Assembly: GCA_017455065.1 (NCBI GenBank)
Contig: JAFTBU010000043.1
Span: forward strand, 1 to 34,436
DNA from: Bacteroidales bacterium
GTDB taxonomy: Bacteria; Bacteroidota; Bacteroidia; Bacteroidales; UBA932
DNA: 34,436 nucleotides
Reading direction: 5' to 3'
Positions 9,816-33,348 of this stretch are shown here, one piece after another. The translations under genes and the position numbers were made by a program. How positions within the stretch are numbered: the stretch's first letter is position 1; the number at the start of each line of letters is the position of its first letter. A model generated the notes under the pieces. That model was not told where the DNA came from, did not search any database, and saw only the letters and a list, made by a program, of their open reading frames with translations.

Positions 9816-11096
9816 TTATCGGGCCATGAATTCCTCCAGAAGATTCTTCCAATGCCCGGGGAGGATGATGTGGTGGTTGCCGATGGGATCCTTCAGGAAA
9901 TACCCGGCATCCTCCGGGGGGAGCCGCAGCACCACCTGGGTGCGGCAGAGGTTGTCTTCGTACTGGTTGGCGGTCAGCTCCCCTTCGGAGACGAAATGCC
10001 TCCCGAGGTCGCCGGAGACCTTGAACACCGTCACCGGTCCTTCGGGGAAATGTCCGTGTATGCCCACGCCTATGCCCGATTCGAAGTGGGTGTCGTATTG
10101 CCAATCCGAGACCATCCCGAAGGGTATGGTGCAATGCGCAAACAGCATCTCGCCGGTCTGTATGTCAATGCGGGCGGGGTTGGCCTGGAAGCCGGTGACT
10201 CCGGTCAGGGCGTGCGCGATCATCATCGAGAGGAGGGCGGGGACGTCCCCTTCGCAGCTGGCGGGGATGCCGCTGCTGTTGAGTGCGGCCAGGGCGAGGC
10301 AGCCGGTGTTGCCGACGCTGCCCAGCAGGTCGAAGCATCTGAGTGTCAATGCGTCCAGGCGATACCGGGAGACCAGCGAGCGGAGGGCGTCGTGGATGCG
10401 CACGGCGCCGGGGAAGGCGTCCCGGACTTTCTGCGCCGTGCCTGGCGCCGGCGCCGGTATCTCCCCGCCGGAAGGGGCGGACGGGATCCCGCCGTCACCG
10501 GCCGGAGGAGCGGTAGCTGCAGAAGGTGCACCGGGGGCAGCAGGGGCCCCGTCGGAGATGGCGGCGAGCAGTTCCTCCATCGGGATGTCCTCGATGGCCA
10601 CGCCGAGGCGGGTGCGGACGGCGCGGGGGTCGGCATCCGATGAGATGAGCCAGTCGGAGGGTTTGCCGACGACGCCGATGCGCTGGCCGGAAAGCCTGCG
10701 GCGGGCCTCACCGACCTTGGCCAGGATACCGATACGCTCCTGCAGATACTCTGCGGAGCCGTGCAGCACCTCGCCCGGATAGCCCTGCTGGCGTAGCCAT
10801 GAGAGGATTTCCAGCGAAGCGGCCAGCGAATTGCTCTTGCCCGAAGTGAGCAGGTGGAAGCGCCCTGCGCCGCTTTTCAGCAGGGTCGGGAAAAGGGACC
10901 GGAAGATCCCTTCAGCGCCTCCGGTGCGCACATAAATGAGGTCGAGCGGGTGGCTTCCGAAATCGGAAAAATCTGCCCCCTTGAAATCGAAATCCCCCTC
11001 CGGGAAGATCCCGGCGAGGAACTCATCCGAAAGCTTTGAGACCGAGGCTTCGTCGTGAAGTCCGGAAGTGATGGTGTAAACTGCTGTCTTTTTCAT
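9816..11096 (-). CDS. L-fucose-isomerase-superfamily protein, Ala/Pro-rich linker
   Basis: This encodes a 426-residue cytoplasmic protein. The ATG at 11096 (MKKTAVYT) is preferred over a TTG at 11108, which falls in a -7 box. The N-terminal alpha/beta part (residues about 1-180) carries HLLTSGKSNSLAAS. A 40-residue insert rich in Ala, Pro and Gly (about 182-222) follows. The C-terminal part resembles FucI/AraA-type isomerases: IPASCEGD (Glu282, Asp284) and GNHHIILPGHW (His408/409) match the positions of the metal-binding Glu, Asp and His, and the protein 13524-14891 shares both motifs. An aldose-ketose isomerase role is inferred and the substrate is unknown. It is transcribed away from the aroK-transketolase operon across a 57-bp gap. 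Confidence 0.7.
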   Translation of the reverse strand: MKKTAVYTITSGLHDEASVSKLSDEFLAGIFPEGDFDFKGADFSDFGSHPLDLIYVRTGGAEGIFRSLFPTLLKSGAGRFHLLTSGKSNSLAASLEILSWLRQQGYPGEVLHGSAEYLQERIGILAKVGEARRRLSGQRIGVVGKPSDWLISSDADPRAVRTRLGVAIEDIPMEELLAAISDGAPAAPGAPSAATAPPAGDGGIPSAPSGGEIPAPAPGTAQKVRDAFPGAVRIHDALRSLVSRYRLDALTLRCFDLLGSVGNTGCLALAALNSSGIPASCEGDVPALLSMMIAHALTGVTGFQANPARIDIQTGEMLFAHCTIPFGMVSDWQYDTHFESGIGVGIHGHFPEGPVTVFKVSGDLGRHFVSEGELTANQYEDNLCRTQVVLRLPPEDAGYFLKDPIGNHHIILPGHWKNLLEEFMAR

Positions 11097-11153
11097 TTCT
11101 ATAAGCAAAGATACTGGAATTATTGCTATTTTAGCATAATAATCTCCAGACCC
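11097..11153. promoter_or_regulatory. Divergent promoter region with small inverted repeat
   Basis: This 57-bp gap serves two divergent genes. On the minus strand TATCTTTG (11106-11113) fits TAnnTTTG and ends 10 bp before the isomerase ATG, implying a very short leader. On the plus strand TATTTTAG (11127-11134) matches 7 of 8 positions. TGCTA/TAGCA (11124-11136) is a perfect 5-bp inverted repeat that could be an operator serving both directions. Confidence 0.4.
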
Positions 11154-11753
11154 ATGATCATCGTACTCTCAGGATATATGGCCAGCGGCAAAAGCAGCAC
11201 CGGACGCGTGCTCTCGCAGCGTCTGGGCTGCCCGTTCATCGACCTCGACGCGGCCATCGAGGAGCGCGAAGGACGCCGGATAAAGGAGATTTTCGCCGCC
11301 GACGGCGAGGAGCGCTTCCGAGAGCTGGAGGCCGAGGCCCTCGCCGAAATCCTCGCCGGCGCCGCCCGGCCTGAAACGGCCGCCCCCGCGACACCCGCCC
11401 CCGCCGACCTCGTCCTCGCCCTCGGCGGCGGCACCCTGATGAAACCGGCAGCCCGCGCCGTCCTGGAAGCCGCCCGCGCCGCCGGCGCCACCGCGCCGGA
11501 AGCCTCCCCGGCCCCCGCCCCGCGCCTGAGCGTCGTGTACCTCCGCACGGCCCCCGCCACCATCCGCCGCCGCCTCGCCGGCGCGGGCGACGACCGCCCC
11601 ATGCTCCACACCCACGACCTGGAAACCCTCCTCCTCCAACGCATCCCCACCTACGAAGCCACCGCCGACACTATCATCGACACAGACGGGCTCACCCCCG
11701 AGGCTATCGCGGAGAAAATCAGTATATTTGCATACAATAACCGTACAACATGA
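11154..11753 (+). CDS. aroK: Shikimate kinase with Ala/Pro-rich insertions
   Basis: This encodes a 199-residue cytoplasmic kinase that phosphorylates shikimate at the 3-hydroxyl. The start is the ATG at MIIVLSGYM. Visible motifs are the Walker A GYMASGKSSTGR (residues 7-18), the shikimate-binding DLDAAIE, ERFRELEAEAL, the ALGGGT segment, and the lid RRRLAGAGDDRPML. It is about 25 residues longer than usual. The extra length is in two Ala/Pro-rich stretches, PETAAPATPAPADL just before the GGG motif and AAGATAPEASPAPAPRL after it. Its TGA overlaps the ATG of the transketolase N-half (ATGA), so it heads the coupled eight-gene unit. Confidence 0.92.
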   Translation: MIIVLSGYMASGKSSTGRVLSQRLGCPFIDLDAAIEEREGRRIKEIFAADGEERFRELEAEALAEILAGAARPETAAPATPAPADLVLALGGGTLMKPAARAVLEAARAAGATAPEASPAPAPRLSVVYLRTAPATIRRRLAGAGDDRPMLHTHDLETLLLQRIPTYEATADTIIDTDGLTPEAIAEKISIFAYNNRTT

Positions 11754-12589
11754 ATATTAAAGAATTGACCCTATTGTCAGAGCGCTCCAGACTCCGCCTC
11801 CTGGAAGTCATCTACCGCTCCGGCGCCGGCCACACGGGAGGGGACCTCTCGTCCCTCAATGTCATGACCGCCCTCTACCACAGGGTGCTCCGCATCTCCC
11901 CCGCCACACTCGACGACCCTGACCGCGACCGCTTCGTCCTCAGCAAAGGACACTGCGCGGAAGCCCTCTATGTCACCCTCGAATCCGCCGGCATCCTCGA
12001 AAAATCCGTCCTGGACAGCTACGGACAGTTCGGCTGCCCCCTGGGCGGACACCCGACCAACGACCTCCCAGGAGTGGAAGTCAACACCGGAGCCCTCGGC
12101 CACGGCCTCTCCATCGGCATAGGCATGGCCCTCGCAGCCAAGATGGACGGCAAATCCTACCGCACCTTCGTCCTCATGGGCGACGGCGAGCAAGGGGAAG
12201 GATCCATCTATGAAGCCGCCATGGCAGGCTCCCATTACCATCTGGACAACCTCCTGGCCATCATCGACCGCAACGGCCTCCAGATCAGCGGCAGCACCGA
12301 AGACGTCATGGCCCTCGAAGACATCAAGGCCAGGTGGACCGCATTCGGCTGGGACGTCCGCGACATGGACGGAGACGACATGGCCGATGTCGTGAAGACC
12401 ATCGAAGCCACCGACTGGAAAGGCGGCAGACCCCACCTCATCATCTCCCACACCACCAAGGGAAAAGGCGTCTCCTACATGGAGAACGTCGCCAAATGGC
12501 ACCACGGCGTGCCTGATGAGGCCCAGTACGCCCAGGCCGTCGGAGAAATCAGCGCAAGGATCAAAAAGCTCGAGGAGGAAAAGGCATGA
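11750..12589 (+). CDS. Split transketolase, N-terminal (TPP-binding) subunit
   Basis: This encodes a 279-residue protein corresponding to the N-terminal, thiamine-diphosphate-binding half of transketolase. It carries GAGHTGGDLSS, LSKGHCAEALY, and the TPP/metal motif GDGEQGEGSIYEA followed by IIDRNGLQ, with TTKGKGVSYME near the end. Two-carbon transfer needs the partner subunit encoded next, whose start overlaps this stop by ATGA. Split transketolases are common housekeeping enzymes in some anaerobes. They also serve in dedicated sugar routes, for example apulose 4-phosphate or sulfofructose cleavage. The operon placement favours a catabolic role, though supply of erythrose 4-phosphate for the shikimate pathway is also possible. 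Confidence 0.92.
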   Translation: MNIKELTLLSERSRLRLLEVIYRSGAGHTGGDLSSLNVMTALYHRVLRISPATLDDPDRDRFVLSKGHCAEALYVTLESAGILEKSVLDSYGQFGCPLGGHPTNDLPGVEVNTGALGHGLSIGIGMALAAKMDGKSYRTFVLMGDGEQGEGSIYEAAMAGSHYHLDNLLAIIDRNGLQISGSTEDVMALEDIKARWTAFGWDVRDMDGDDMADVVKTIEATDWKGGRPHLIISHTTKGKGVSYMENVAKWHHGVPDEAQYAQAVGEISARIKKLEEEKA

Positions 12590-13518
12590 AAGACTGCAGA
12601 AAAGCATTTACCCAGGAACTCCTGGCCATCGCCAGGAAAGACCGTGACATAGTAGCCGTCACCACCGACGCCCGCGGCTCGGTGACCCTCAGCGACTTCG
12701 CCAGCGAGCTCCCCGCCCAGTTCGTGGAGTGCGGCATCGCGGAGCAGAACGCCGTCGGCATCTCCGCCGGCCTCGCCCACAGCGGCAAGAAAGTGTACTG
12801 CTGCGGCCCCGCCTGCTTCTACGTGGCCCGCAGCCTCGAGCAGGTCAAGGTCGACCTCGCCTACAGCAACATCCCCGTCACCATCGTTGGAGTGAGCGGC
12901 GGCTTCGCCTACGGAGCCCTCGGCGCCACCCACCACAGCATGCATGACATCGCTGTGCTCAGGTGCTTCCCCGGCATGTCCATTTTCCTGCCGAGCGACG
13001 CAGCGGTGACAGCCAGGCTCACTGACCTCCTCGCCGACTATCCCCACCCCGCCTACGTCAGGGTCGGAAGGGGAGCGGTGCCCGAGATATATGACCCCGC
13101 GAAACTCGACTTCAGTATAGGCAAGGCTATAGTCGCCCGGGAGGGCACTGACGTCACCATCGCCGCTACCGGCGAATCCGTCGCCCCCGCCCTCGAGGCA
13201 GCCAAGCTCCTCGAAACCAAGGGGATAGCTGCGGCGGTTCTGGACTATTCCTGCATTGTCCCGTTCGACAGCGAGACTCTCCGCAAATACGCAGCGCGCA
13301 GCGGCAGGGTGGTGACAGTCGAGCAGCACAGCCGCTGGGGCGGCCTCGGCTCCATCATCGCCGGCGAACTCTCCGAGACCGATGCCAAGGTGCGCATCCT
13401 CGGCGTCCCCGACGAGAACGCCCCCCACGGCAGCTCAGCCGAGATTTCCCATTATTTCGGTCTCGACGCCGAAGGCATCGCGGCCTCCACAAGTGAATTT
13501 TTAAATTTAAATAAATAA
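12586..13518 (+). CDS. Split transketolase, C-terminal (pyrimidine-binding) subunit
   Basis: This encodes a 310-residue protein matching the pyrimidine-binding plus C-terminal domains of transketolase/DXPS-type enzymes. ECGIAEQNAVGISAGLA contains the glutamate that activates TPP. GGFAYGALGATHHSMHDIAVLR, YVRVGRGAVPEIY and the C-terminal VVTVEQHSRWGGLGSIIAGEL follow the family pattern. It is coupled to the N-half by ATGA overlap and followed after 5 bp by the isomerase-like gene. It is presumably a heterotetramer with the upstream product. Confidence 0.92.
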   Translation: MKDCRKAFTQELLAIARKDRDIVAVTTDARGSVTLSDFASELPAQFVECGIAEQNAVGISAGLAHSGKKVYCCGPACFYVARSLEQVKVDLAYSNIPVTIVGVSGGFAYGALGATHHSMHDIAVLRCFPGMSIFLPSDAAVTARLTDLLADYPHPAYVRVGRGAVPEIYDPAKLDFSIGKAIVAREGTDVTIAATGESVAPALEAAKLLETKGIAAAVLDYSCIVPFDSETLRKYAARSGRVVTVEQHSRWGGLGSIIAGELSETDAKVRILGVPDENAPHGSSAEISHYFGLDAEGIAASTSEFLNLNK

Positions 13519-13523
13519 TAGAG

Positions 13524-14891
13524 ATGAAAGAAAAAGCCATCAACACCAAGCTTATCGTGCGTCCCATCATCGGATGCCTCACCCATTCCCATTTCTGGGA
13601 GGGACCTTGCCGCGCCGGCCACAAGGAGGACATGACCCCCGAGGCCGAGGCTGCAGCAGCTGATGCTGCATTCGCGGCGGCGGTGGAGGAGCTCAAAGGC
13701 GCCAACCCCGAAATCGAGTTCCTGCCCGCAGTGGACGCCCGCTATGATGAAAAATTCGTCGTCCCCAAGGAAGTCTGGGCCCAGATCGAGGACCGTATCG
13801 ACGAGGTGGACTTCTTCCTCTGCATGAACTGGCGCATCCCCAAGCTCGAGCGCTACCGCAAGACCGTGGTCATCATGCAGAACGGCAACGAAGGCATAGA
13901 CTTCGCCGCCTACTGCCGCTCCATCGGCCTGGAGGCCTATGTCTGCATGGATCTCAAGGACCTCAATGAGATCTCCCACTCCCTCTGGGTGCGCAAGGCC
14001 GTGGCCAACACCCGCGCCCTCGTGCTCACTGCCGGCGCCCTGCCGACCTTCGGCATGCAGAGCCTCATCCGCGACCCCGAGCTCATACGCCAGAGGTACG
14101 GGATGGAAGTGATCAAGCTGCCTTTCTACGAGATTTTCAAATACATGGACCAGATCACCGACGAGGAAGCCGCACCCATACGCGACCGCATCGCCTGCAA
14201 GGCCCTCGAGATCAAGGTCAACAAAGACTGGTTCATCAATGACATCAAATACTACCTCGCGGCCAAGAAGATGATGGACGTGTACGACTGCAACGCCTTC
14301 TCCACGGCCTGCCACGAGCTCTGCACCTCCGAGATACCCCAGAACCGCAAGTTCACCCCCTGCATGTGCCATTCGCTCATGAAAGACGACGGCATCCCCA
14401 GCGCCTGCGAAGAGGACCTGAACGCCCTGCTCGCGATGACCATCATGCAGTATGCCGCACACCGTCCCGCCTTCATGGGCAACCCCAACATGGAGTCCGA
14501 GGAGCTCATCCGCATCCACCACGCCGTCCCCGCCCTCTGCATGAACGGCTACGGCACCAAGCCCCTCGACTACAAGCTCTGGGCATTCACAGGCCAGGGC
14601 TTCGGAGCCAAGCTCCAGGTGGACTTCTGCCAGAATGAGACCAACGAGGTCACCCTCTGCCGCTTCAACCCCAAGGCCGACACCATGAGCCTCAAGGTCG
14701 GCAACGTGATCCGCTCCGAGTACGACGATGTCTATTGCAGCCCCTACTACTACATCCAGATGGATGACGCCCGCGCCTTCATGCACCAGCTTGCAGGCTT
14801 CGGCCATCACCAGGTGCTGATTTTCGGCGACTGGACCAAGGTCCTCCGCGGAGTGGCCGAAGTGATGAAATTCAGGCTGTTGGTAGGATGA
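13524..14891 (+). CDS. L-fucose/L-arabinose-isomerase-superfamily protein
   Basis: This encodes a 455-residue cytoplasmic protein. The N-terminal part starts LIVRPIIGCLTHSHFWEGPCR and continues with Rossmann-like segments (VVIMQNGNEGID, ALVLTAGALPTFGMQSL). The C-terminal domain has DDGIPSACEEDLNALL (Glu296, Asp298) and FGHHQVLIFGD, which fit the metal ligands of FucI-type aldose-ketose isomerases. The same motifs occur in the divergent protein at 9816-11096, but overall similarity is low and this one lacks the Pro-rich linker. Placement directly after the split transketolase suggests that it makes or reshapes a ketose substrate for it. Its stop overlaps the next start by ATGA. Confidence 0.75.
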   Translation: MKEKAINTKLIVRPIIGCLTHSHFWEGPCRAGHKEDMTPEAEAAAADAAFAAAVEELKGANPEIEFLPAVDARYDEKFVVPKEVWAQIEDRIDEVDFFLCMNWRIPKLERYRKTVVIMQNGNEGIDFAAYCRSIGLEAYVCMDLKDLNEISHSLWVRKAVANTRALVLTAGALPTFGMQSLIRDPELIRQRYGMEVIKLPFYEIFKYMDQITDEEAAPIRDRIACKALEIKVNKDWFINDIKYYLAAKKMMDVYDCNAFSTACHELCTSEIPQNRKFTPCMCHSLMKDDGIPSACEEDLNALLAMTIMQYAAHRPAFMGNPNMESEELIRIHHAVPALCMNGYGTKPLDYKLWAFTGQGFGAKLQVDFCQNETNEVTLCRFNPKADTMSLKVGNVIRSEYDDVYCSPYYYIQMDDARAFMHQLAGFGHHQVLIFGDWTKVLRGVAEVMKFRLLVG

Positions 14892-16024
14892 TCTATCTCA
14901 ACAACGCTGCCAGCTCCTTCCCCAAGCCTTCCGAAGTGCTTGAGGCGCAGGCTGCGGCGTTGGCTGCCGCTCCCGAGAGCCAGCATCGCTCCAATGCCGC
15001 AGACGGCGGCACTGACGCGACCGCCCTCTGCCGGGAGCGGCTGGCCTTTCTGCTGGGCACCTCCCGGCCGGAAAGGATATTCTTCTGCTCCGGTGCGACC
15101 CATGCGCTGAACCTCCTGCTCGGCGGCCTGCCGCAGCAGTACAGCTGCGCCGTCGTCACCGCCACCGAGCACAACAGCGTCCTCCGTCCCCTGTCCAACA
15201 GCCCCGTCTTCGCAGGGCGCATCGCCATTGTCCCCTGTGACAATGCCGGCAGAGTCCACCCTGCCGCATTCGAGGAGGCCCTCCGTGCAGCCGCGGAGCG
15301 CTGGGGACCGGGAGTCGCCGTGGTGAACCATTGTTCCAATGTCACCGGCGCCATTCAGGATGCGGCAGCCCTCGCACAGGCCGCCCGCAGCCACGGTTTC
15401 CTCTTCCTGCTGGACGCCGCGCAGAGCGCAGGCAGCGTGCCGTTGAGGCTGGACGGATGGGGAGTGGACATGCTGGCATTCACCGGGCACAAAGCCCTGC
15501 TGGGCCCCGCCGGGACCGGCGGTTTCTTCGTGAGGGATGGCCTGCGGCTGCGTCCCCTGATCTACGGCGGGACGGGCACGGACTCGGACAAATTGACCTA
15601 CGGCCCCGACGAGCAGGCGCCCCTCGAAGCCGGCACCCAGAACACCCCGGGCATAGCCGGGCTCCTCGCAGGCGTGGAATACGCCCTGGCCCATCCGGAC
15701 GCGGGAAAGAGCCTTCGGGACGAGCTGAAAAAAGAGCTGGACTCCATCCCCGGAGTCCGCACCTACGGACCAGAAACGGGCGCCGGAGCGGTGCTGAGCT
15801 TCAATATCGACGGCCTCAGCCCCTCGGACGCCGGCTACATACTCAGGAACGAATTCGACATTGTCGTGAGGACGGGACTGCATTGCTCCCCCCTCATCCA
15901 CGACGCCATCGGGGCGGGACCCCGGGGGACGGTGCGGGCCAGCTTCTCCGGCCTGAACACCCCCGCCGACGTCCGGGCCCTCGTGCAGGCCGTGCGGCAG
16001 ATGTCCAAAAGCCCCGCCCTATGA
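14888..16024 (+). CDS. Cysteine-desulfurase-family PLP enzyme (aminotransferase class V)
   Basis: This encodes a 378-residue cytoplasmic enzyme. It opens MIYLNNAASSFPKP as in NifS/SufS relatives. Further motifs are TEHNSVLRP, HCSNVTGAIQD, DAAQSAGS, the PLP-lysine motif FTGHKALLGPAGTGG, the mobile-loop RTGLHCSP with the candidate catalytic Cys, and a late RASFSGLNT arginine. The short-loop layout resembles the group often annotated only as 'cysteine desulfurase family'. In other bacteria such genes sit beside selenium or sulfur trafficking genes. Here the gene lies between an isomerase and a glycosidase, coupled by ATGA on both sides. Sulfur transfer, selenocysteine lyase or another PLP reaction are all open. 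Confidence 0.85.
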   Translation: MIYLNNAASSFPKPSEVLEAQAAALAAAPESQHRSNAADGGTDATALCRERLAFLLGTSRPERIFFCSGATHALNLLLGGLPQQYSCAVVTATEHNSVLRPLSNSPVFAGRIAIVPCDNAGRVHPAAFEEALRAAAERWGPGVAVVNHCSNVTGAIQDAAALAQAARSHGFLFLLDAAQSAGSVPLRLDGWGVDMLAFTGHKALLGPAGTGGFFVRDGLRLRPLIYGGTGTDSDKLTYGPDEQAPLEAGTQNTPGIAGLLAGVEYALAHPDAGKSLRDELKKELDSIPGVRTYGPETGAGAVLSFNIDGLSPSDAGYILRNEFDIVVRTGLHCSPLIHDAIGAGPRGTVRASFSGLNTPADVRALVQAVRQMSKSPAL

Positions 16025-16308
16025 AGATACTCGACAGGATAAAATCCCGCGAACCCTGCGTGGAATCCGGCTGGGACGCCTTCGACTTCCTGGTGGACGC
16101 CCCCATAGACGAGGCCTTCATACTCAGCCTGCGCCCCCTCGGGTCATTCTCCTACATGAAGGCTCTCAAGCGGCCCTTCTTCAAGATAGAGTCCCACCAC
16201 TACATCATCAAAGGCCTGCAGGGAGACAGCTTTTTCCGCGTCGCCGTGCACCGGGACCACATGGACGAACTACAAATGATAACAGGATACATAACCGGTC
16301 AAACATGA
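16021..16308 (+). CDS. Uncharacterised 95-residue protein coupled to the PLP enzyme
   Basis: I do not recognise this family. The 95-residue product is soluble, with no signal peptide or membrane segment. Notable stretches are a conserved-looking FLVDAPIDEAFILSLRPLG, ALKRPFFKIESHHYIIKG and FFRVAVHRDHMDEL, and there is a single cysteine (Cys13). It is real on context grounds: its ATG overlaps the PLP-enzyme stop and its TGA overlaps the GH31 start, both as ATGA. A partner or acceptor of the PLP enzyme is a natural guess. It does not look like the DUF3343 Se/S-carrier type, since the expected cysteine motif is missing. Confidence 0.8.
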   Translation: MKILDRIKSREPCVESGWDAFDFLVDAPIDEAFILSLRPLGSFSYMKALKRPFFKIESHHYIIKGLQGDSFFRVAVHRDHMDELQMITGYITGQT

Positions 16309-18515
16309 AAGCTACCAACTACCAACTGTTCGACTTCCTGGATTTCGACCCCGCGATGACGGGCCGCGAGACGCTCTGGCGCGCCTGCAAGCCCACCGCC
16401 ATCAGGGAAGAGGCGGGCGAGGTGGTCATCACCGTCCCCTTCCAGAAGCAGAACAATTCCAACGAAATCACCCCCGACACCTCGGTCCCTCCGGTGGACA
16501 GGGAAATACGCATCCAGGCCGTCTCAGACCACATTTTGCGGGTCATGCTCGAGGCCGGAGCCAGTATAGACAGGACCTCCCCGATGCTGGAGATTTCGCC
16601 TGAGCTCAAGGCCCTCGCCCTCCATGTGGAGGAAGCCGACGGGCAGTGGATTATCAAAGACTCCGCGGGCGCAAAACGCGCGGCAGTGGACCTTCGCGAC
16701 CCCGAGATCGAGTGGTGGAGCGACCTGCAGCCCGGCCCCAGGCCCACCATACGCCTCACCCTCTGGCCGGACGGACGCCACGAAGTGCCCTTCCAGGCCC
16801 TCGACTCCTTCTCCCCGGCCCGGCACGACGCCTTCGCATTTGCCTACGCCGAGACAGACGGAGAGGTGGACCGCATGACATGCTCCTTCCCCGCCGCCCA
16901 CGACGAGTGCTTCGCCGGCACCGGCGAGAGATTCACCAAGATGGACCTCAGCGGCCAGACCCTGCAGATGCGCAACCAGGACGGACAGGGCGTCAACAAC
17001 CGCCGCACCTACAAATGCATCCCCTTCTACCTTTCGTCCCGGGGTTACGGAGTCTTCCTGCACACTACCGACTTCGCCAAATTCTCCCTCGCCGACCATT
17101 CCAGGCGCTCCGCCCAGGTCTTCGTCGAGGACGCCCGGCTCGACCTTTTCGTGATGGCCGACGACAGCCCCGAGCGCATACTCTACCACTACCGCAGCCT
17201 CACCGGCTTCCCCGCCGTCCCGCCCCGCTGGAGCTACGGCATCTGGATGAGCCGCATGACCTATTTCTCCGCCGACGAGGTGGACGCCATCTGCCGCCGT
17301 CTCCGCGAAGAGCACTGGCCCTGCGACGTGATACACCTCGACACCGGCTGGTTCCGCACCGATTGGCTCTGCGAGTGGAAGTTCAATGACGAGAGATTCC
17401 CTGAGCCGGAGAAGTTCGTGCGCAAACTCCTCGCCGACGGCTTCAAGATCAGCCTCTGGCAGCTGCCGTACATCTCCTTCGGCGCCGCCCAGTACCGCGA
17501 GGCGATAGAAAACAATTATATCGGAAAATCCGAGCGCAAGATCAGCGGAGCGTCCAACTTCAGCTCCGAAGACTACGCCGGCACCATAGATTTCACCAGC
17601 CCCGAAGCCACCGCCTGGTACCAGGGACTGCTCCGCAACCTGCTGCAGATGGGTGTCAAATGCATCAAGACCGACTTCGGCGAGGACATCCACATGGATG
17701 CCGAGTACCGGGGCATGAGCGCCAAGCAGCTGCACAACCTCTACCCCCTGCTCTACCAGAAAGCCGCCTTCGACGTGACCCGGGAGGTCACCGGCGACGG
17801 CATCATCTGGGCACGTTCCTCCTGGGCGGGCAGCCAGAGGTACCCCGTGCACTGGGGAGGGGACTCCGCGGGCAATTGGGAAGGCCTTGCCGGTTCGCTC
17901 AAGGGCGGCCTGCACTTGGGCCTCAGCGGCTTCGCGTTCTGGAGCCACGACATCCCCGGCTTCCACTCCCTGCCGGACTTCATGAATTCCCCCATTCCCG
18001 ACGACATCTATGTCCGCTGGACGCAGTTCGGAGTGTTCACCTCGCACATGCGCTACCACGGCTCGCACGCCAGGGAGCCCTGGCTCTTCCCCCGGGTCGC
18101 AGACATTGTCAAAGACTGGTGGAACCTGCGCTACCGCCTGATCCCATACATCGAGGAGCAGGGCCGCAAATGCGCCGCGAGCGGCTACCCCATGACCCGG
18201 GCCCTGCTCTTCCACCACCCCGACGACAGCATCTGCTGGCACATCGACGACGAATACTACTTCGGCGACGACTTCCTCGTGGCGCCGGTGATGAACGCCG
18301 AGGGTGTCCGCGACATCTATCTGCCCGAGGGCAGTTGGGTGGACTTTTTCACCAAGGAGCGCTACCAGGGTCCCCGCATGCTCAAGGGCTTCCGGGTGTC
18401 TCTCGAGAGGATGCCCGTCTTCGTGCGCGAAGGCGCCCGCATCCCCGTGTACCCCGATCCGGTGGGCAGCACCGATGACATGAAAGACGACCGTACCACA
18501 TATCTCCAATACTGA
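16305..18515 (+). CDS. Cytoplasmic GH31 glycosidase, alpha-xylosidase-like
   Basis: This encodes a 736-residue protein with no signal peptide, so it should act in the cytoplasm on an imported glycoside. GH31 hallmarks are RWSYGIWMSRMTY, DVIHLDTGWF, KISLWQLPYI, the nucleophile motif KTDFGED (Asp457), RSSWAGSQRYPVHWGGD with the acid/base Asp520, and GFAFWSHDIPGF. These resemble YicI-type alpha-xylosidases more than maltase-type enzymes. The C-terminal beta domain is short. The regions I could compare do not resemble sulfoquinovosidase YihQ, but a substrate cannot be fixed from sequence. The TGA shares one base with the symporter ATG (TGATG). Confidence 0.88.
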   Translation: MKATNYQLFDFLDFDPAMTGRETLWRACKPTAIREEAGEVVITVPFQKQNNSNEITPDTSVPPVDREIRIQAVSDHILRVMLEAGASIDRTSPMLEISPELKALALHVEEADGQWIIKDSAGAKRAAVDLRDPEIEWWSDLQPGPRPTIRLTLWPDGRHEVPFQALDSFSPARHDAFAFAYAETDGEVDRMTCSFPAAHDECFAGTGERFTKMDLSGQTLQMRNQDGQGVNNRRTYKCIPFYLSSRGYGVFLHTTDFAKFSLADHSRRSAQVFVEDARLDLFVMADDSPERILYHYRSLTGFPAVPPRWSYGIWMSRMTYFSADEVDAICRRLREEHWPCDVIHLDTGWFRTDWLCEWKFNDERFPEPEKFVRKLLADGFKISLWQLPYISFGAAQYREAIENNYIGKSERKISGASNFSSEDYAGTIDFTSPEATAWYQGLLRNLLQMGVKCIKTDFGEDIHMDAEYRGMSAKQLHNLYPLLYQKAAFDVTREVTGDGIIWARSSWAGSQRYPVHWGGDSAGNWEGLAGSLKGGLHLGLSGFAFWSHDIPGFHSLPDFMNSPIPDDIYVRWTQFGVFTSHMRYHGSHAREPWLFPRVADIVKDWWNLRYRLIPYIEEQGRKCAASGYPMTRALLFHHPDDSICWHIDDEYYFGDDFLVAPVMNAEGVRDIYLPEGSWVDFFTKERYQGPRMLKGFRVSLERMPVFVREGARIPVYPDPVGSTDDMKDDRTTYLQY

Positions 18516-20086
18516 TGAAAAACGAAATAATCAATCTTTCCGGCCTCGATATCGGGATCATAGTCCTGTATATAGTAGCCCTGTTCGCCATAGCCCTCTG
18601 GGCCAGCTACGGCAAGAAAAACAAGACCGACAGCCTCTTCCTCGCCGGCAAGTCGCTGGGCTGGATGGCCATAGGCCTCACCATGTGGGGCACCAATGTC
18701 GGCCCCTCGATGCTCATAGCCAACGCCAGCAGCGGATACGAGAGCGGCATGGTGGCGGGAAACTTCTCCTGGATGGCCTTCCCCTTCATCATGCTCCTCG
18801 CCTTCGTCTTCGCTCCCAAATACATGGGCGCAGGCGTGTCCACCCTGCCTGAGTACATAGGCAAACGCTTCGGGGCCCGCACCCGCGGCTACATCGCCTG
18901 GTACACCATAGCCACGACCCTCATCTCCTGGCTGGGCCTGACCCTCTTCTCCGGAGGCGTGTTCATGGCCCAGATCCTGGGCATGAAACTCTGGGTCTGC
19001 ATCACCATCCTGGTCGTCGTCTCGGCCCTCTTCGCGATGGCCGGCGGCCTCAAAGCCATTGCCTACACCAATGTCTTCCAGATGCTGCTGCTCATCGCCG
19101 TGGCCATCATCCTGGTGGTGCTCTCCTTGGTCAAGGCCGGAGGCATGGGGACCGTGGTGGAGACCGTACCCCCTGACTATTGGAACATGTTCAAGCCCCT
19201 GAGCGACCCTGACTTCCCCTGGCTCGCTCTGGTCATCGGCTACCCCGTGATGGGTATATGGTTCTGGTGCACCGACCAGTCCATGGTGCAGTCCGTGCTC
19301 GGAGCCAAAAACATGGACCAGGGACGCCTGGGTGCCAATTTCTGCGCCTGGCTCAAGGTCCTCGACATTCCTCTGTTCATACTCCCCGGCATACTCTGCC
19401 TCGTGCTCCTGCCGGACCTCAAGAACTCCACCGACGCCTACCTCCAGCTCGCCCAGACCGTGCTGCCTTCGGGTCTGCTGGGACTCGTGGTGGTGGTGAT
19501 GCTGGCCGCCCTGATCAGCACCATCGGCTCGGCGCTCAACTCGCTCAGCACCATATTCACCCTGGACATCATGCTCCGCGGCAAGCCCGAGGGCAGCGTG
19601 ACCCCCGCCCAGACCAAGCGCATAGGCCGCATCATCGTGCTCGCCGGCGCCGTGATCTCGGTCTTCCTCGCCGTCGCCATCTCCTTCATCCAGGGCCTCA
19701 ATTTCTTCAATATCTTCCAGTCCGTGCTGAGTTTCATCGCACCGCCCATGGCCGTGACCTTCCTCGCCGCGGCCCTGTGGAAGAAGACCTCGCGCCGCGC
19801 CATCGACTTGGTGCTCTCAGCGGGCACCATCCTCTCGATAGGCGTGGGCATCCTGTACTACTGCGGTCTGATATTCCAGGGAGTGCACTACATGTACATT
19901 TCGGTGGGCCTCTTCATCTTCCTCATCCTCTTCGTGCTGATCTTCTCAGCCCTGGACACCAAGAACGTCCCGGCCCCCATGGAGATCCAGGATGCGGACA
20001 TAAAAGTAAAGCCCACGGTCATGATCGCGTGGGCTCTGCTGGTGGTAGTAATGATAGCTCTCTACATCATATTCAACGGCCATTGA
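18515..20086 (+). CDS. SSS-family sodium:solute symporter
   Basis: This encodes a 523-residue inner-membrane transporter of the solute:sodium symporter family, SGLT branch, with about 13-14 hydrophobic segments. Family features are the early GWMAIGLTMWGTNVGPSMLI, WLGLTLFSGGVFMAQ, AMAGGLKAIAYTNVFQ, WCTDQSMVQSVLGAKN, and ALISTIGSALNSLSTIFTLDI, where sodium-site residues usually lie. It is the last gene of the coupled unit and overlaps the GH31 stop by one base. It most likely imports the GH31 substrate or its sugar. Its 3' end overlaps the convergent fucosidase gene by 14 bp, leaving no room for a conventional terminator. Confidence 0.93.
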   Translation: MKNEIINLSGLDIGIIVLYIVALFAIALWASYGKKNKTDSLFLAGKSLGWMAIGLTMWGTNVGPSMLIANASSGYESGMVAGNFSWMAFPFIMLLAFVFAPKYMGAGVSTLPEYIGKRFGARTRGYIAWYTIATTLISWLGLTLFSGGVFMAQILGMKLWVCITILVVVSALFAMAGGLKAIAYTNVFQMLLLIAVAIILVVLSLVKAGGMGTVVETVPPDYWNMFKPLSDPDFPWLALVIGYPVMGIWFWCTDQSMVQSVLGAKNMDQGRLGANFCAWLKVLDIPLFILPGILCLVLLPDLKNSTDAYLQLAQTVLPSGLLGLVVVVMLAALISTIGSALNSLSTIFTLDIMLRGKPEGSVTPAQTKRIGRIIVLAGAVISVFLAVAISFIQGLNFFNIFQSVLSFIAPPMAVTFLAAALWKKTSRRAIDLVLSAGTILSIGVGILYYCGLIFQGVHYMYISVGLFIFLILFVLIFSALDTKNVPAPMEIQDADIKVKPTVMIAWALLVVVMIALYIIFNGH

Positions 20087-22172
20087 CGCCGCTGAACACG
20101 ATCTTTACGACATCGTCGGCACTGCCTCTCCGCTCTGCGGGGAGGCTTATTTTCAGCACTCCGCCCTCATAGCTGAAGGGGACTTCGCCGCCGTCCGCGA
20201 GCAGGGTGACTTTCTGGGGCCTCTTGGCTATGGTCAGCTCCAGAGGACCCTCGAGACCCTTGAGGAAGTGGGCGTAGGTCACATCGCCCAGATTCTTGGC
20301 GCCTATGGTGAGAGGCAGGTTGGAAATCTTCTGCCAGTCCTCGTAGTCGGTGGTGCCGATGACGGATTCTTTGTTGACGTCCATCCAGGCCTTGATCTTG
20401 GCGCACTCCTCATAGAAACCGGGCCTCATGCCGCCGTCGGGCTGTGGACCGATGTCAGGCAGGTAGTTGCCGCCGAAGCTGCGGGCGTACACGAGAGCCG
20501 CTATCACGACGTCGAAGTCACGGAAGCGGGCGCCCGGCGAATAGCCCCAGTGGCCGCTCCAGGTCTCGTTGAACTCCCACCATTCGCCGTGGGGATAAGG
20601 CCTGCCTTCGGTCATGCGCTTGCGCCATGAGATCTCCTCGGTGCGGAAATCGCCGAAGGGGGACTCTGCTCCGAACTCGGTGGTCTGGCCGAAATTGACC
20701 TGATGGCCCTGGACTTCCCAGCGGGGATTGATGATCATGCCGGGCTGGACGGCGCGCAGCCAAGAGTGCAGGATGTCGTCGTGGGTGTTGACTCCACCCC
20801 AGCCTATGCCGTCAAACCAGATCACGTCGATGGCTCCGTAGCGGGTGAGTATCTCGCTCATCTGGCCCACGGTGTAGCGGAAGAACTCGTCGTATTTCTC
20901 CTGGCTCTCTTCGGGTGTGTAAGGGAAGGGCTTGCGCTTGCCGTAGGTCCACTCATCGAAGGAGACGGGGTATTCGGGGTAGCTCCAGTCCCTGGGGGAG
21001 AAGTAGAGGCCTATCTTGAGGCCGTACTTGCGGCAGGCGGCCACCAGGGGCCCGATCAGGTCGCGTCCGCCCATGTAGGTGCGGGTGTTGTACTCGCCGT
21101 ATTCCGTCGGCCAGAGGCAATATCCGTCGTGGTGCTTGGCGGTGATGACCATGTAGGTGAAACCGGTCTCCTTCGCCGTGCGGGCCCACTCTTCGGGGTC
21201 GTAGGCGCTGGGATTGAACTCCTTGGCCAGGCGGTAATACTTGTCGTGGGGGATATAGACGTCGTTGGTGAGCCAGGGGATGCCGGCGAGCATGCTCCAG
21301 GAAGGGTCGCCTCCCGCCACGCTGTGTATGCCCCAATGGATGAAGAGTCCGAATCCGGCCTGGGGGTACCATGCCGCGTCGGGGCTCTGGGTGTGCCGGA
21401 ACGGTTCGCCCTTGATGGTGTCGAGCAGCTGCATCGCCGTCCTCTCGTTGTAGCCGCCGGGGCTGGTGGCGCCGCCGACGCAGAGGAGTTTGTCAATATC
21501 GACAGGCTCGTACATCATCCACGGTGCGTCCCCGGGGTGGTCGATGTTCTCCTGGTACCCGGCCATGAGGCCGTTCCAGACGTCCACGCGGGGGTTGTCC
21601 TTCGTGGTGAGGGGGTCCAGCTCGGAGAGGCTGCTGCCCTTGGGGTAGCTGATGACGAGCATCAGGCGCCGTCCGGCGTCCTTGTACACCCGCACCTGCT
21701 CATATCCGGCCCGTGCGAAGCCCTCAGCCACCTCGGGGAAGAGTTCGCCCTGCCGCTTGTGATAGTCCAGGTATTCGGCCTGTTTTGCCCCGTCCTCGAC
21801 CATGTTGCAGGTCATCACGGCGTAGTCCAGGCTCTTCACCGGAGCCTTGCCGGTGTGCTTCTCACGGTTGAAATCGTAGAAAGGCTGGTCGAAGCAGCTG
21901 ATCTGAGGCTTGCCGGAGGCCTTCAGGGCGGCGACCATTGCCTGGGCGTCCTTTGCGGGCACCAGGAACACGTACCTGTCTCCCGCGGCCTTCTGGAAGG
22001 TGCCGGGGCCGGCGCCTTTGATCAGGGCCACAGCCTCGTCGGAGGGCTGTCCTCCGATGTGATAGTCAGCTTCGATGACGACCAGGTCGTCTATCCTGCC
22101 GGCACCGGTGCTGCATGCCGTCAGAGCCAGCGCCGCCAGCGCTGCGATTGCAAATGCTTTGGTTGTTTTCAT
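20073..22172 (-). CDS. Lipoprotein fusing a mutarotase-like domain to a GH29 alpha-L-fucosidase
   Basis: This encodes a 699-residue protein with lipobox LTAC (Cys20), so it is probably membrane-anchored or surface exposed. Residues about 115-225 resemble L-rhamnose/L-fucose mutarotases (RhaM type): YLDYHKRQGELFPEVAEGFARAGYEQVRVYKD and the following beta strand. Residues 30-110 are an additional domain I cannot name. Residues about 260-690 form the GH29 barrel: WYPQAGFGLFIHWGIHS, MVITAKHHDGYCLWP, IGLYFSPRDWSYPEY and IDVIWFDGIGW, where Asp454 is the expected nucleophile. A small C-terminal beta domain follows. A fucosidase that also speeds anomer exchange of released fucose is a reasonable inference. 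A terminator separates it from susD upstream. Confidence 0.88.
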   Translation of the reverse strand: MKTTKAFAIAALAALALTACSTGAGRIDDLVVIEADYHIGGQPSDEAVALIKGAGPGTFQKAAGDRYVFLVPAKDAQAMVAALKASGKPQISCFDQPFYDFNREKHTGKAPVKSLDYAVMTCNMVEDGAKQAEYLDYHKRQGELFPEVAEGFARAGYEQVRVYKDAGRRLMLVISYPKGSSLSELDPLTTKDNPRVDVWNGLMAGYQENIDHPGDAPWMMYEPVDIDKLLCVGGATSPGGYNERTAMQLLDTIKGEPFRHTQSPDAAWYPQAGFGLFIHWGIHSVAGGDPSWSMLAGIPWLTNDVYIPHDKYYRLAKEFNPSAYDPEEWARTAKETGFTYMVITAKHHDGYCLWPTEYGEYNTRTYMGGRDLIGPLVAACRKYGLKIGLYFSPRDWSYPEYPVSFDEWTYGKRKPFPYTPEESQEKYDEFFRYTVGQMSEILTRYGAIDVIWFDGIGWGGVNTHDDILHSWLRAVQPGMIINPRWEVQGHQVNFGQTTEFGAESPFGDFRTEEISWRKRMTEGRPYPHGEWWEFNETWSGHWGYSPGARFRDFDVVIAALVYARSFGGNYLPDIGPQPDGGMRPGFYEECAKIKAWMDVNKESVIGTTDYEDWQKISNLPLTIGAKNLGDVTYAHFLKGLEGPLELTIAKRPQKVTLLADGGEVPFSYEGGVLKISLPAERRGSADDVVKIVFSGVNGR

Positions 22173-27104: not shown

Positions 27105-27251
27105 AAAATAAAGAGAATTTTGGTTAAATATAGTAATGTGTGTACTAATCTTGGTTATGTGTTCGTGCCAAACGGACCCGCAAATATGACAATAATAATC
27201 CGAAATACCAAATTTTAGTTATATTTGGAAAGCAAACAAAACGACACTCAA
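27105..27251. promoter_or_regulatory. Divergent promoter region of susC and GH29-CE15
   Basis: This 147-bp AT-rich gap feeds both strands. On the plus strand TATATTTG (27220-27227) is a full match to TAnnTTTG, 24 bp before the ATG at 27252. On the minus strand TATATTTA (27125-27132) matches 7 of 8 positions, 20 bp before the susC ATG. Clear -33 TTTG elements at the usual spacing were not seen. Shared control of the locus is plausible. Confidence 0.5.
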
Positions 27252-31937: not shown

Positions 31938-32129
31938 CTACTTCTCAATACGCAGACTGCCGTCATCATCCAAGACAATGGTGTCACCCTCATTTACGGA
32001 CTCAAACCCCTCACCCGTGTCCACCGACAACATCGAAAACCCCATGCAGAAATACGGCGCCAGGACTTTGTCCCCGCAGAGACGCTTGACCTCGTCGTAG
32101 TTTGTGCCGGTGAATGTGATGCGCTGCAT
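31938..32129 (-). CDS. Small uncharacterised protein (63 aa)
   Basis: Function is not recognised. The product starts MQRITFTGTNYDEVKRLCGDKV and ends FESVNEGDTIVLDDDGSLRIEK; the GDTI-V-DD-G pattern looks like the small beta modules of phage or mobile-element proteins. It appears real because of protein-like composition and a full -7 box (TACCTTTG) only 4 bp before the ATG, which would give a nearly leaderless message. It is oriented opposite to both neighbours. Confidence 0.55.
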   Translation of the reverse strand: MQRITFTGTNYDEVKRLCGDKVLAPYFCMGFSMLSVDTGEGFESVNEGDTIVLDDDGSLRIEK

Positions 32130-32133
32130 GGGG

Positions 32134-32141
32134 CAAAGGTA
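32134..32141 (-). promoter_or_regulatory. Putative -7 box (TACCTTTG) of the 63-residue gene
   Basis: TACCTTTG on the minus strand matches TAnnTTTG and ends 4 bp before the start codon. If transcription begins the usual 4-7 bases downstream, the message is leaderless. Confidence 0.35.
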
Positions 32142-32247
32142 AGGATAATTGAATTATAAAAGCATAAAGAGATACCATTCAAGGTGACGCGCTCTTTTGT
32201 TTCGAGAGTATTCGATTTTTAAACTTAAACAATTAACACATCCAATT

Positions 32248-32484
32248 ATGATTATTTCTATCAAGCAGGACAATCTCACCGTTGCCGCAAAATTAGAGGA
32301 GGACGTTTTCGAGAAAAGCGTCTCATGTGAAGAGTTGATGCTGGCCGCCTTTGACCTCATCGGCCAAGTGTTTTCCCAGAAGAGCGTTGTCAAGGCCTAT
32401 TATAGGCTCGACCCAGACACAATGGCCTTCAGATCAAATGAAGATCCCATAATGCAGATGATTCCTCAGTGTTTAAAAGAATAG
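32248..32484 (+). CDS. Small uncharacterised protein (78 aa)
   Basis: I do not recognise it. The start chosen is ATG 32248 (MIISIKQDNLTVAAKLEEDV), because the in-frame ATG at 32197 adds a poor-looking, AT-biased leader. The product is acidic, soluble, and contains SCEELMLAAFDLIGQVFSQKSVV and a Met-rich end. AT content is higher than in the metabolic genes to the left. It may belong to an accessory element. Confidence 0.55.
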   Translation: MIISIKQDNLTVAAKLEEDVFEKSVSCEELMLAAFDLIGQVFSQKSVVKAYYRLDPDTMAFRSNEDPIMQMIPQCLKE

Positions 32485-32540
32485 CCGCCCAGTTAGCAAT
32501 AACGAAACGCTGGAGGACCGCACCTGGTATAGAAGTATCT

Positions 32541-32571
32541 TTTGTCTATCGGAATTTTTTCGGTATCTTTA
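32541..32571 (+). promoter_or_regulatory. Putative Bacteroidota promoter, both boxes
   Basis: TTTG (32541-32544) and TATCTTTA (32564-32571) are separated by 19 bp, the usual -33/-7 spacing for this phylum. The -7 box differs from TAnnTTTG at the last base. It lies about 50 bp before the ATG at 32623. It is the most complete promoter match in the window. Confidence 0.6.
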
Positions 32572-32622
32572 CATCAAACAGGCGCCTATTTACAACTATT
32601 CATACATTTATTTCCTTGTTTT

Positions 32623-32943: not shown

Positions 32944-33002
32944 ACAGGTTTATATCAATAATTTATATCGAACAAAATAGCCTGATACTAATATCAATCT
33001 GC

Positions 33003-33296: not shown

Positions 33297-33314
33297 TTTC
33301 AATACTCTGTCATT

Positions 33315-33348
33315 ACGCCCTGATCCCTCGATGAGTCAGGGCGTTTTG
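33315..33348 (+). terminator. Rho-independent terminator
   Basis: ACGCCCTGA (33315-33323) and TCAGGGCGT (33336-33344) form a perfect 9-bp stem with a 12-nt loop, followed by TTTTGTCT. It closes transcription from the left just ahead of the controller-protein operator. Confidence 0.8.

What the first reader, a model, noticed from the sequence alone, without database searches (positions are those of the whole stretch)
11154..20086. Coupled operon joining isomerase, split transketolase, PLP desulfurase, unknown protein, cytoplasmic GH31 and sodium symporter
Eight genes in one direction; six of the seven junctions overlap (five ATGA, one TGATG) and the seventh is a 5-bp gap. The content reads as a route: symporter import, intracellular GH31 cleavage, FucI-type isomerisation, transketolase cleavage. 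No sugar kinase is present. Known split-transketolase sugar routes (apulose 4-phosphate; sulfofructose in the sulfo-TK pathway) show that such pairs can be catabolic, and the sulfo-TK route needs no kinase because a sulfonate replaces phosphate. But no sulfoacetaldehyde reductase is seen and GH31 resembles alpha-xylosidases, so the substrate is open. Leadership by aroK may also tie erythrose 4-phosphate supply to the shikimate pathway.
Basis: partly seen in the sequence, partly recalled or inferred. Interest (0 to 1): 0.82.

Follow-up and report, generated by a model that had tools for sequence, protein, structure and literature searches.

The report
Sugar-isomerase and sulfur-relay gene trio
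The eight-gene run is real but stitched together from three sources, and inside it sits a three-gene unit (a sugar-isomerase-like protein, a cysteine desulfurase and a small cysteine-bearing protein) that is shared among rumen and gut bacteria and may help break down a leftover piece of plant pectin.

Summary
The one-pathway reading is only partly right, because the run is composite. (1) aroK is this genome's only shikimate kinase. (2) The split transketolase is an extra copy; its nearest relatives found stand in a unit tktN-tktC-glycerol-kinase-like FGGY-SftI-like isomerase, in a region with an apiosidase-family gene, and this genome carries the matching kinase and isomerase on another contig. 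The 'missing' kinase thus exists, and a D-apiose route fits better than sulfo-TK. (3) The rest is a cassette seen across phyla. In 80 related loci isomerase, desulfurase and 95-aa orphan stay together (both partners near in 43 of 45 fully flanked loci), often with a GH31 (43 of 80), rarely with a transketolase (3 of 80), with aroK in none. Canonical L-fucose isomerase is in 17 of 18 triad genomes searched. Best reading: import and cytoplasmic cleavage of an alpha-xyloside of fucose, possibly 2-O-Me-Xyl-alpha1,3-Fuc, the one rhamnogalacturonan-II linkage that B. thetaiotaomicron leaves uncut, with desulfurase and orphan serving the isomerase as a sulfur relay. Substrate and relay are inferred, not shown.

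The parts
11154..11753 (+). aroK, shikimate kinase; only copy found in this genome; head of the run, not part of the cassette
   Evidence: PF01202; sole PF01202 match in G000; no match in the 80 related loci
11750..12589 (+). tktN, thiamine-diphosphate half of a split transketolase (AptA-like by context)
   Evidence: PF00456; 58-66% identical to the tktN of Prevotella clusters with FGGY kinase and SftI-like isomerase; separate full-length TK at C42
12586..13518 (+). tktC, pyrimidine-binding/C-terminal half of the split transketolase (AptB-like by context)
   Evidence: PF02779+PF02780; 64-66% to Prevotella L207/L208, 51% to L065
13524..14891 (+). ISO (iso1): FucI/AraA-superfamily isomerase-like protein, core of the triad
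   Evidence: weak NF048012; hhalign 97% to the SftI-like C49 family; 71-80% identical in 80 loci; E265, E296, D298, H332, H333, H428, H429 in 81 of 81
14888..16024 (+). DES: SufS/CsdA-type cysteine desulfurase-like PLP enzyme, triad member
   Evidence: TIGR01977 306 bits, cut-off 377; PDB neighbours; H95 74/74, K202 73/73, C333 71/71, R350 70/71 of rows with a letter
16021..16308 (+). SML: orphan 95-aa protein with invariant Cys13, triad member, putative sulfur acceptor
   Evidence: no relevant Pfam/NCBIfam/PDB family; S9 C13 E15 G17 W18 A20 G41 P52 F53 F54 G65 R73 invariant in 58
16305..18515 (+). GH31, alpha-xylosidase-type by profile score, no signal peptide seen by eye
   Evidence: PRK10658 481.5 bits vs PRK10426 242.3; best PDB chain 5f7c 1062.7 bits, then YicI; GH31 in 43 of 80 triad loci
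18515..20086 (+). SSF sodium:solute symporter, putative importer of the glycoside
   Evidence: PF00474; homologous SSF in 14 of 80 triad loci, all Bacteroidota-type
9816..11108 (-). iso2: second SftI-like protein, divergent from the run; 52% homolog near the triad in 1 of 80 loci (L031)
   Evidence: NF048012 E 2.2e-12; for L031

Best explanation
The run is a composite of three units: aroK, the genome's only shikimate kinase; an additional split transketolase of the D-apiose (AptAB-like) kind whose kinase and isomerase are elsewhere in this genome; and a cassette ISO-DES-SML with GH31 and a transporter that has crossed phyla. The cassette takes up a small alpha-D-xyloside, GH31 splits it in the cytoplasm, the fucose half goes to canonical FucI, and the triad deals with the other half: ISO acts as an aldose-ketose isomerase (or runs a related reaction with the same ene-diol chemistry), and DES (Cys333 persulfide) hands sulfur to SML (Cys13), which serves ISO or its product. 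Shown: gene order, conservation, co-occurrence, intact catalytic residues. Inferred: substrate, direction of sulfur flow, reaction of ISO.
For: Triad linkage: of 45 fully flanked loci 44 have DES, 44 have SML, 43 both within 5 kb; 72 of 73 DES on the ISO strand; identity matrices of the three proteins correlate at r 0.77-0.82, 0 of 300 permutations as high. ISO at 71-80% identity in Bacillota, Bacteroidota and Spirochaetota. A probable congener (L035) has ISO-DES-SML-GH141-GH31-SSF without aroK or tkt in its 21 kb (congener inferred from identical FucI coordinates and score of G674 and G697). GH31 in 43 of 80 loci; the two tested differ in type but both lie nearest alpha-xylosidases or 5f7c/YicI. 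FucI in 17 of 18 triad genomes against, over the cut-off, 15 of 296 Bacteroidota and 16 of 61 of the genus, both controls including this genome; FucI follows the triad operon on the same strand in L068 and lies about 10.6 kb after ISO in L069, there with mutarotase-, aldolase- and kinase-like genes. A fucose-mutarotase-like gene stands directly before SML-ISO in L049 and L066 (L049's is 115.5 bits, under the cut-off of 141). GH141 after SML in 16 of 80, with GH31 next in 13 of these. Transketolase unit: contiguous tktN-tktC-FGGY-isomerase in L207/L208, matching FGGY (59%) and isomerase (77%) at C49 of this genome, apiosidase-family gene in both Prevotella regions. DES (40-42%) and SML paired without ISO in two loci of another Bacteroidota family, so the pair exists on its own. 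ISO Cys100 and Cys131 are in 81 of 81 triad proteins but not in the two triad-free homologs.
Against: 13 of 45 fully flanked triad loci have no GH31 or GH29/95/141 match in the fetched flanks, so the glycan context is not universal. L049 and L066 have SML-ISO without a linked DES, and their genomes hold only distant desulfurases (30-33% identity). FucI controls exist only for Bacteroidota; the 14 other triad genomes (13 with FucI) have none, and the triad status of the control genomes was not checked one by one. The 18 genomes were picked by me out of the 80 loci plus this genome. ISO scores far below any equivalog cut-off, and no structure could be predicted. Strong apiosidase-family matches (E below 1e-90) are in only 6 of 18 triad genomes, 8 of 18 have none, and this genome has only a weak one (8.5e-13). 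The best PDB relative of the GH31 is, from recall, a B. thetaiotaomicron protein, and that species leaves 2-O-Me-Xyl-alpha1,3-Fuc uncut (PMC7939467, passages).
Confidence: 0.45

Rival explanations
1. The run is one pathway as first read: symporter import, GH31 cleavage, isomerisation by ISO and cleavage of the unphosphorylated ketose by the neighbouring transketolase.
For: Direct adjacency and a 5-bp gap between tktC and ISO in the window; tkt, FGGY and GH31/triad lie within about 14 kb of each other in L065, L075 and L077.
Against: Only 3 of 80 triad loci have transketolase halves in the fetched flanks and none has aroK; the closest transketolases go with an FGGY kinase and a different isomerase.
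Confidence: 0.12
2. Sulfoglycolysis: ISO is a sulfoquinovose isomerase, GH31 a sulfoquinovosidase, TktNC the sulfofructose transketolase (sulfo-TK).
For: ISO's only NCBIfam hit is SftI, E 3.7e-6; the sulfo-TK route uses SqvD, SqwGH and SqwI (PMC11659671 and PMC12890257, passages); iso2 could supply a second isomerase.
Against: 26 bits against a cut-off of 700; GH31 YicI-like 481 vs YihQ-like 242 bits; no sulfoacetaldehyde reductase or sulfonate exporter among the window's family matches; does not explain DES, SML or the FucI association.
Confidence: 0.04
3. DES and SML have nothing to do with sugar: they are a sulfur-trafficking pair for a general process (Fe-S, tRNA or cofactor thiolation) that happens to ride with ISO.
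For: DES-SML without ISO next to pheS-like and carboxylase-like genes in L172/L173, an SML homolog inside a hyp-like hydrogenase cluster in L178 (neighbour names by eye).
Against: 43 of 45 fully flanked loci keep all three together across phyla with recurring overlaps and correlated divergence.
Confidence: 0.2
4. The alpha-xyloside comes from another glycan (fucosylated xyloglucan or the alpha-xylosylated, L-galactosylated arabinoxylan of grasses) rather than from RG-II, and ISO is a plain isomerase of one of its sugars.
For: GH95 directly follows GH31 in L018, L023, L024 and L028; XylA is missing in 13 of 18 triad genomes while GH31 would release xylose; window neighbours are two GH29-type genes, one fused to a glucuronyl-esterase-like domain; single GH2-like genes near the triad in L056 and L031 and a GH3-like one in L047 (by eye).
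Against: No beta-galactosidase or beta-glucosidase family stood out among the clusters shared by five or more loci (45 largest looked at); the GH141-GH31-FucI-apiose set points to RG-II chain A.
Confidence: 0.3

Closest known systems
D-apiose non-oxidative route (AptA/AptB split transketolase, FGGY kinase, apiose isomerase)
   Same: Split transketolase halves, FGGY kinase and an isomerase contiguous in L207/L208, with an apiosidase-family gene in the same regions; kinase and isomerase present at C49 here. aptA, aptB, the kinase (printed there as aplK) and apsI as pathway genes: PMC13001218, passages; the primary paper (Carter et al.) is only recalled and seen as a reference there.
   Different: Substrate untested; the isomerase is SftI-like here and its kinship to apsI was not tested; in the window the transketolase is parted from kinase and isomerase and stands in another operon.
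Sulfo-TK sulfoglycolysis (SqvD, SqwGH, SqwI, SqwF)
   Same: Split transketolase plus two members of an isomerase superfamily near each other.
   Different: No sulfonate enzymes seen, GH31 not YihQ-like, ISO far below the SftI cut-off.
Group II cysteine desulfurase with its acceptor (SufS-SufU, CsdA-CsdE; TIGR01977 EF2568 family), grouping recalled
   Same: DES keeps PLP lysine, stacking histidine, catalytic cysteine and carboxylate arginine (roles recalled) and is coupled to a small Cys protein.
   Different: SML matches no known acceptor family; DES is under the TIGR01977 cut-off; the usual third partner is a sugar-isomerase-like protein.
L-fucose / L-arabinose isomerase superfamily (COG2407, name recalled)
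   Same: A profile of 40 rows (ISO proteins plus L007, L008, iso2 and the C49 protein) matches AraA (E 0.0012) and FucI (E 0.35) chains; ISO matches the C49 SftI-like family (97%) with the CExD and HH motifs aligned.
   Different: Nine cysteines kept in 97% or more of 83 aligned proteins, no Pfam model, canonical FucI also present in 17 of 18 of the same genomes.
RG-II utilisation of Bacteroides thetaiotaomicron
   Same: GH141, GH78, GH95, apiosidase-family and FucI genes around triad or transketolase unit in Prevotella.
   Different: B. thetaiotaomicron leaves 2-O-Me-Xyl-alpha1,3-Fuc uncut (PMC7939467, passages); I did not search that genome for the triad.

Membership tests
Sulfo-TK sulfoglycolysis | sulfoquinovose isomerase (NF048012) over its cut-off | tested here: not met
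   26 bits vs 700 for ISO, 46.5 for iso2; 0 of 3 matches in the genome over the cut-off
Sulfo-TK sulfoglycolysis | sulfoquinovosidase-type GH31 | tested here: not met
   PRK10658 (alpha-xylosidase) 481.5 bits, PRK10426 242.3 bits
D-apiose AptABK route | split transketolase linked to an FGGY kinase | tested here: inconclusive
   linked in L207, L208, L065, L075, L077; in this genome kinase and transketolase are on different contigs
D-apiose AptABK route | activity on apulose 4-phosphate | not testable with these tools
   needs an assay
Cysteine desulfurase, SufS/CsdA type | PLP lysine, catalytic cysteine, substrate arginine | tested here: met
   K202 73/73, C333 71/71, R350 70/71 rows with a letter (roles of the residues recalled)
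TIGR01977 (EF2568 family) | score over the curated cut-off | tested here: not met
   306 vs 377 bits
FucI/AraA superfamily | profile similarity with conserved putative metal-site residues | tested here: met
   E296 aligns with the glutamate of AraA's GEGDW (its role recalled)
L-fucose isomerase (Pfam FucI) | Pfam FucI domains | tested here: not met
   no Pfam family for ISO at E 0.001
YicI alpha-xylosidase (NF007940) | equivalog cut-off | tested here: not met
   481.5 vs 606 bits; KTDFGE at 455 and GGDS at 518 present
Known sulfur acceptors (SufE, SufU, TusA, DUF3343) | family match of SML | tested here: not met
   58 SML proteins against Pfam and NCBIfam at E up to 5, PDB profile search: nothing relevant

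The most novel reading that the evidence does not exclude
The cassette degrades the leftover disaccharide of rhamnogalacturonan-II. GH31 cuts 2-O-Me-Xyl-alpha1,3-Fuc, FucI takes the fucose, and the triad is a demethylating isomerase for 2-O-methyl-D-xylose: ISO draws the C2 proton and reprotonates at C1, which turns the C2 methoxy group into an O-methylated carbonyl, and the persulfide delivered by DES and SML takes the methyl group (or water replaces it), giving D-xylulose plus a methyl (per)sulfide or methanol. That would be a sugar O-demethylation without oxygen or corrinoid, and, as far as I know, the first use of a persulfide relay in sugar catabolism.
Probability: 0.09. Interest if true: 0.92.

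Novelty: new variant of a known kind. Interest (0 to 1): 0.66.

Why it matters
If the triad is what it looks like, a rumen and gut gene unit couples cysteine-derived sulfur to the use of a plant sugar, for which I know of no precedent. It also offers a concrete candidate for the one RG-II linkage that B. thetaiotaomicron leaves uncut, and so makes that open point directly testable with a handful of purified proteins. For annotation it warns that an ATGA-coupled run can be a composite of parts with separate histories.

Tried and rejected
Sulfo-TK reading: rejected on isomerase and GH31 scores and on missing sulfonate genes in the window. Erythrose-4-phosphate supply to the shikimate pathway: aroK is the sole copy found, close relatives have aro genes of this cluster without this operon in the stretches fetched, and a full-length transketolase exists at C42; nothing supports a functional tie. 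ISO as replacement of XylA or FucI: the window genome has both, and XylA is missing in 13 of 18 triad genomes, so a xylose role is neither shown nor excluded. RNA element near the triad: none at gathering score in six sources. SML by sequence families: nothing. Literature: no paper in the library holds cysteine desulfurase, fucose isomerase and alpha-xylosidase together; 'apulose' with 'apiose' gave none; 'rhamnogalacturonan II', apiose and transketolase gave two, by listing unrelated; of 16 papers naming 2-O-methyl-xylose (listing) I saw passages of two, PMC7939467 and PMC12168206: the first says the linkage is left uncut, the passages of the second name no enzyme for it; the other 14 I saw as listing only. 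RG-II enrichment by apiosidase family: mixed (6 of 18 strong, 4 weak, 8 none), and no control search was left for it. A comparison of the GH31 pocket around O2 was considered and not done. The careful ISO tree did not finish; the quick tree is what I cite.
Full report
Observation. The eight genes, their order and their junctions are as described: five ATGA overlaps, one TGATG, one 5-bp gap. Family searches name shikimate kinase, the two halves of a transketolase, an Aminotran_5/TIGR01977-type PLP enzyme, GH31 and a sodium:solute symporter; the isomerase-like protein has no Pfam family and only a weak SftI hit, and the 95-aa protein has none. A second SftI-like gene, iso2 (9816-11108, minus), diverges from the run. 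On the minus strand beyond it lie a thioredoxin-like gene and pheA, aroC, tyrA, DAHP synthase and aroB; downstream are a GH29 gene, susD, susC and a GH29 gene fused to a glucuronyl-esterase-like domain. The genome has 2.1 Mb in 64 contigs, the window being contig C28; that it is a Bacteroidota genome is inferred from susC/susD and from its probable congener L035, titled Bacteroidales.

The run is composite. aroK is the only shikimate kinase found in the genome. The genome also has a full-length transketolase on C42, so the split one is extra. Split transketolases at about 40% identity are common in the genus, but in the three genus examples read (L157-L159) without aroK or the isomerase in the 10-15 kb fetched. 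The aro genes of the closest relatives are not followed by this operon in the stretches fetched. The isomerase-like protein was found in 3 of 247 genomes of the order at E below 1e-20, this one included, the other two at 31-35% identity.

The conserved unit. A scan of the genome collection gave 104 pattern matches, 99 relatives of the isomerase-like protein, of which the best 80 were kept, at 71-80% identity, in Prevotella and other Bacteroidota, Lachnospiraceae and other Bacillota, and two spirochaetes. I call the three genes ISO, DES and SML. DES is in 73 of the 80 loci and SML in 71 by clustering (72 by BLAST), many loci being cut by contig ends. Of the 45 loci with at least 5 kb on both sides, 44 have DES and 44 have SML within 5 kb, 43 both. 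58 loci have the order ISO-DES-SML, 8 DES-SML-ISO. 17 of 64 ISO-DES junctions and 32 of 66 DES-SML junctions overlap by 4 bases, with starts inferred from the window's start. Pairwise identities of the three proteins correlate at 0.80, 0.77 and 0.82, with 0 of 300 permutations as high; shared descent of the genomes adds to this. aroK is in none of the 80 loci and transketolase halves in three, L065, L075 and L077. A quick tree puts the 29 labelled Bacteroidota proteins on one branch (support 90) nested among Bacillota, with the window and one Bacillota row (L056) next to them; I read this as transfer between phyla. L035, whose genome gives the same FucI coordinates and score as a congener in the genus search, carries ISO-DES-SML-GH141-GH31-SSF without aroK or transketolase in its 21 kb.

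What the three proteins are. ISO: comparison with the SftI-like proteins of C49, L207, L208 and L065 gives 97% probability over 296 columns, with the CExD and HH motifs aligned; a profile that also held L007, L008, iso2 and the C49 protein reaches L-arabinose and L-fucose isomerases in PDB weakly (E 0.0012 and 0.35), while the single sequence finds nothing. E265, E296, D298, H332, H333, H428 and H429 are in 81 of 81 triad proteins and, at these positions, in the two more distant homologs L007 and L008; C100 and C131 are in 81 of 81 but not in those two, whose fetched flanks (12.5 and 14 kb) hold no DES or SML. DES: nearest solved structures are cysteine desulfurases of the SufS/CsdA type; lysine 202, histidine 95, cysteine 333 and arginine 350 are kept. 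SML: no relevant family in Pfam, NCBIfam or PDB; Cys13 and eleven other positions are invariant in 58 sequences. In 395 Bacteroidota genomes SML-like proteins occur in 7: this one and six of a single other family. There SML stands next to a DES-like gene (40-42% identity) without ISO in L172 and L173, behind a purine-nucleoside-phosphorylase-like gene in L171 and L175, between hypB- and hypF-like genes in L178, and in other settings in L174, L176 and L177; the Cys is kept in these eight (neighbour names and the Cys by eye). L049 and L066 have a fucose-mutarotase-like gene, SML and ISO without DES, and their genomes show only distant desulfurases. So SML pairs with DES without ISO and with ISO without DES, the pattern expected of a carrier between the two; this is an inference.

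Context. GH31 is in 43 of 80 loci and GH29/GH95/GH141 in 24; of the 45 fully flanked loci 32 have one or the other and 13 have neither. The GH31 of the window resembles 5f7c and YicI; the one Lachnospiraceae GH31 searched (L024) resembles BoGH31A and other alpha-xylosidases. L068 reads LacI, rhamnulokinase-like kinase, DES, SML, ISO, AraC, GH31, two-component pair, ABC transporter, FucI (the kinase of the matching locus L088 passes TIGR02627 at 533 bits); in L069 FucI with mutarotase-, aldolase- and kinase-like genes begins about 10.6 kb after ISO. Canonical FucI is in 17 of 18 triad genomes against 15 of 296 Bacteroidota over the cut-off (24 at E 0.001) and 16 of 61 of the genus; both controls include this genome, the second probably also that of L035. 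The 18 are my pick, and there is no control for the 14 that are not Bacteroidota. XylA is in 5 of 18. L043 has XylB- and XylA-like genes beside the triad operon (by eye; one search gives only a sub-threshold TIM-barrel hit for the second).

The transketolase's own partners. In two Prevotella genomes with the triad (of L086 and L013) the closest relatives found of the window's halves stand in the order tktN, tktC, GlpK-like FGGY kinase, SftI-like isomerase, 6-7 kb from FucI, with an apiosidase-family gene upstream in both (PF13204) and GH78 and GH2 genes in the one upstream region read (L209). L065 has tktC, the same kind of kinase and isomerase, then GH31 and the triad. In the window genome the kinase (59% to L208) and isomerase (77%) are on C49 next to an MFS transporter and a rhamnosidase-like gene. 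Paper PMC13001218 (passages) names aptA and aptB as the two transketolases of D-apiose degradation with a kinase and the isomerase apsI; the original work is known to me from recall only. I therefore read the window's pair as AptAB-like; its substrate is not shown.

Proposal. PMC7939467 (passages) states that B. thetaiotaomicron cleaves 21 of 22 RG-II linkages, all but that in 2-O-Me-Xyl-alpha1,3-Fuc, and accumulates this disaccharide; its oligosaccharide shows the chain A order 2-O-Me-Xyl, Fuc, Rha, Api. The genes around triad and transketolase fit these parts: GH31, FucI, GH141 (its role on the Fuc-Rha bond is recalled), GH78, rhamnulokinase-like kinase, apiose-type transketolase. By elimination the triad would serve the methylated xylose. 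Against this: 8 of 18 triad genomes have no apiosidase-family match and this genome only a weak one, though scavengers of a disaccharide would not need it; 13 of 45 loci lack the glycosidases looked for; and the GH31's nearest solved relative comes, from recall, from B. thetaiotaomicron itself. I put about 0.3 on the RG-II disaccharide as substrate, 0.4 on a sulfur relay to ISO, 0.6 on the transketolase being apiose-type, and 0.95 on the composite nature of the run and the reality of the triad.

Verdict. Observation confirmed; the one-pathway reading is not supported for aroK and transketolase and partly supported for the rest. The triad is a conserved unit that I did not find in print in the searches named; its function is inferred.

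Noticed in passing
window 9816-11108 (-); L031 15730-16938 (-): A second SftI-like gene (iso2) diverges from the run; a 52% homolog lies 4.4 kb from the triad in a Prevotella genome (L031; the only one of 80 loci), beside a GH78 gene, so iso2 may belong to the same physiology.
   Followed up: partly
L178 8330-8632: An SML homolog sits between hypB- and hypF-like genes of a hydrogenase maturation cluster (neighbour names by eye).
   Followed up: no
L049 1283-2854: A RACo-type corrinoid-protein activator (PF14574, PF17651) lies between a LacI-like gene and an Rbs-like ABC operon that leads to mutarotase-SML-ISO; of interest if methyl groups are involved, but no other match in the loci held at that time.
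   Followed up: partly
L073, L076, L079, L082: An exporter-like gene (ArsP_2, PF11449, tested on L079) precedes DES-SML-ISO in four Lachnospiraceae loci.
   Followed up: no
L073 12426-14396: A protein with an ADP-ribosyltransferase exoenzyme domain (PF03496) lies near the triad in one locus.
   Followed up: no
window 27225-29873 (+): GH29-type domain fused to a fungal-type glucuronyl esterase domain (PF22244) in one protein.
   Followed up: no
window 20073-22172 (-): GH29 protein with an L-rhamnose-mutarotase-like domain (PF05336) in its N-terminal part.
   Followed up: no
window 32001-34000: G+C falls to 43% against about 55-65% elsewhere in the window; no family for the two ORFs tested there or just beyond.
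   Followed up: no
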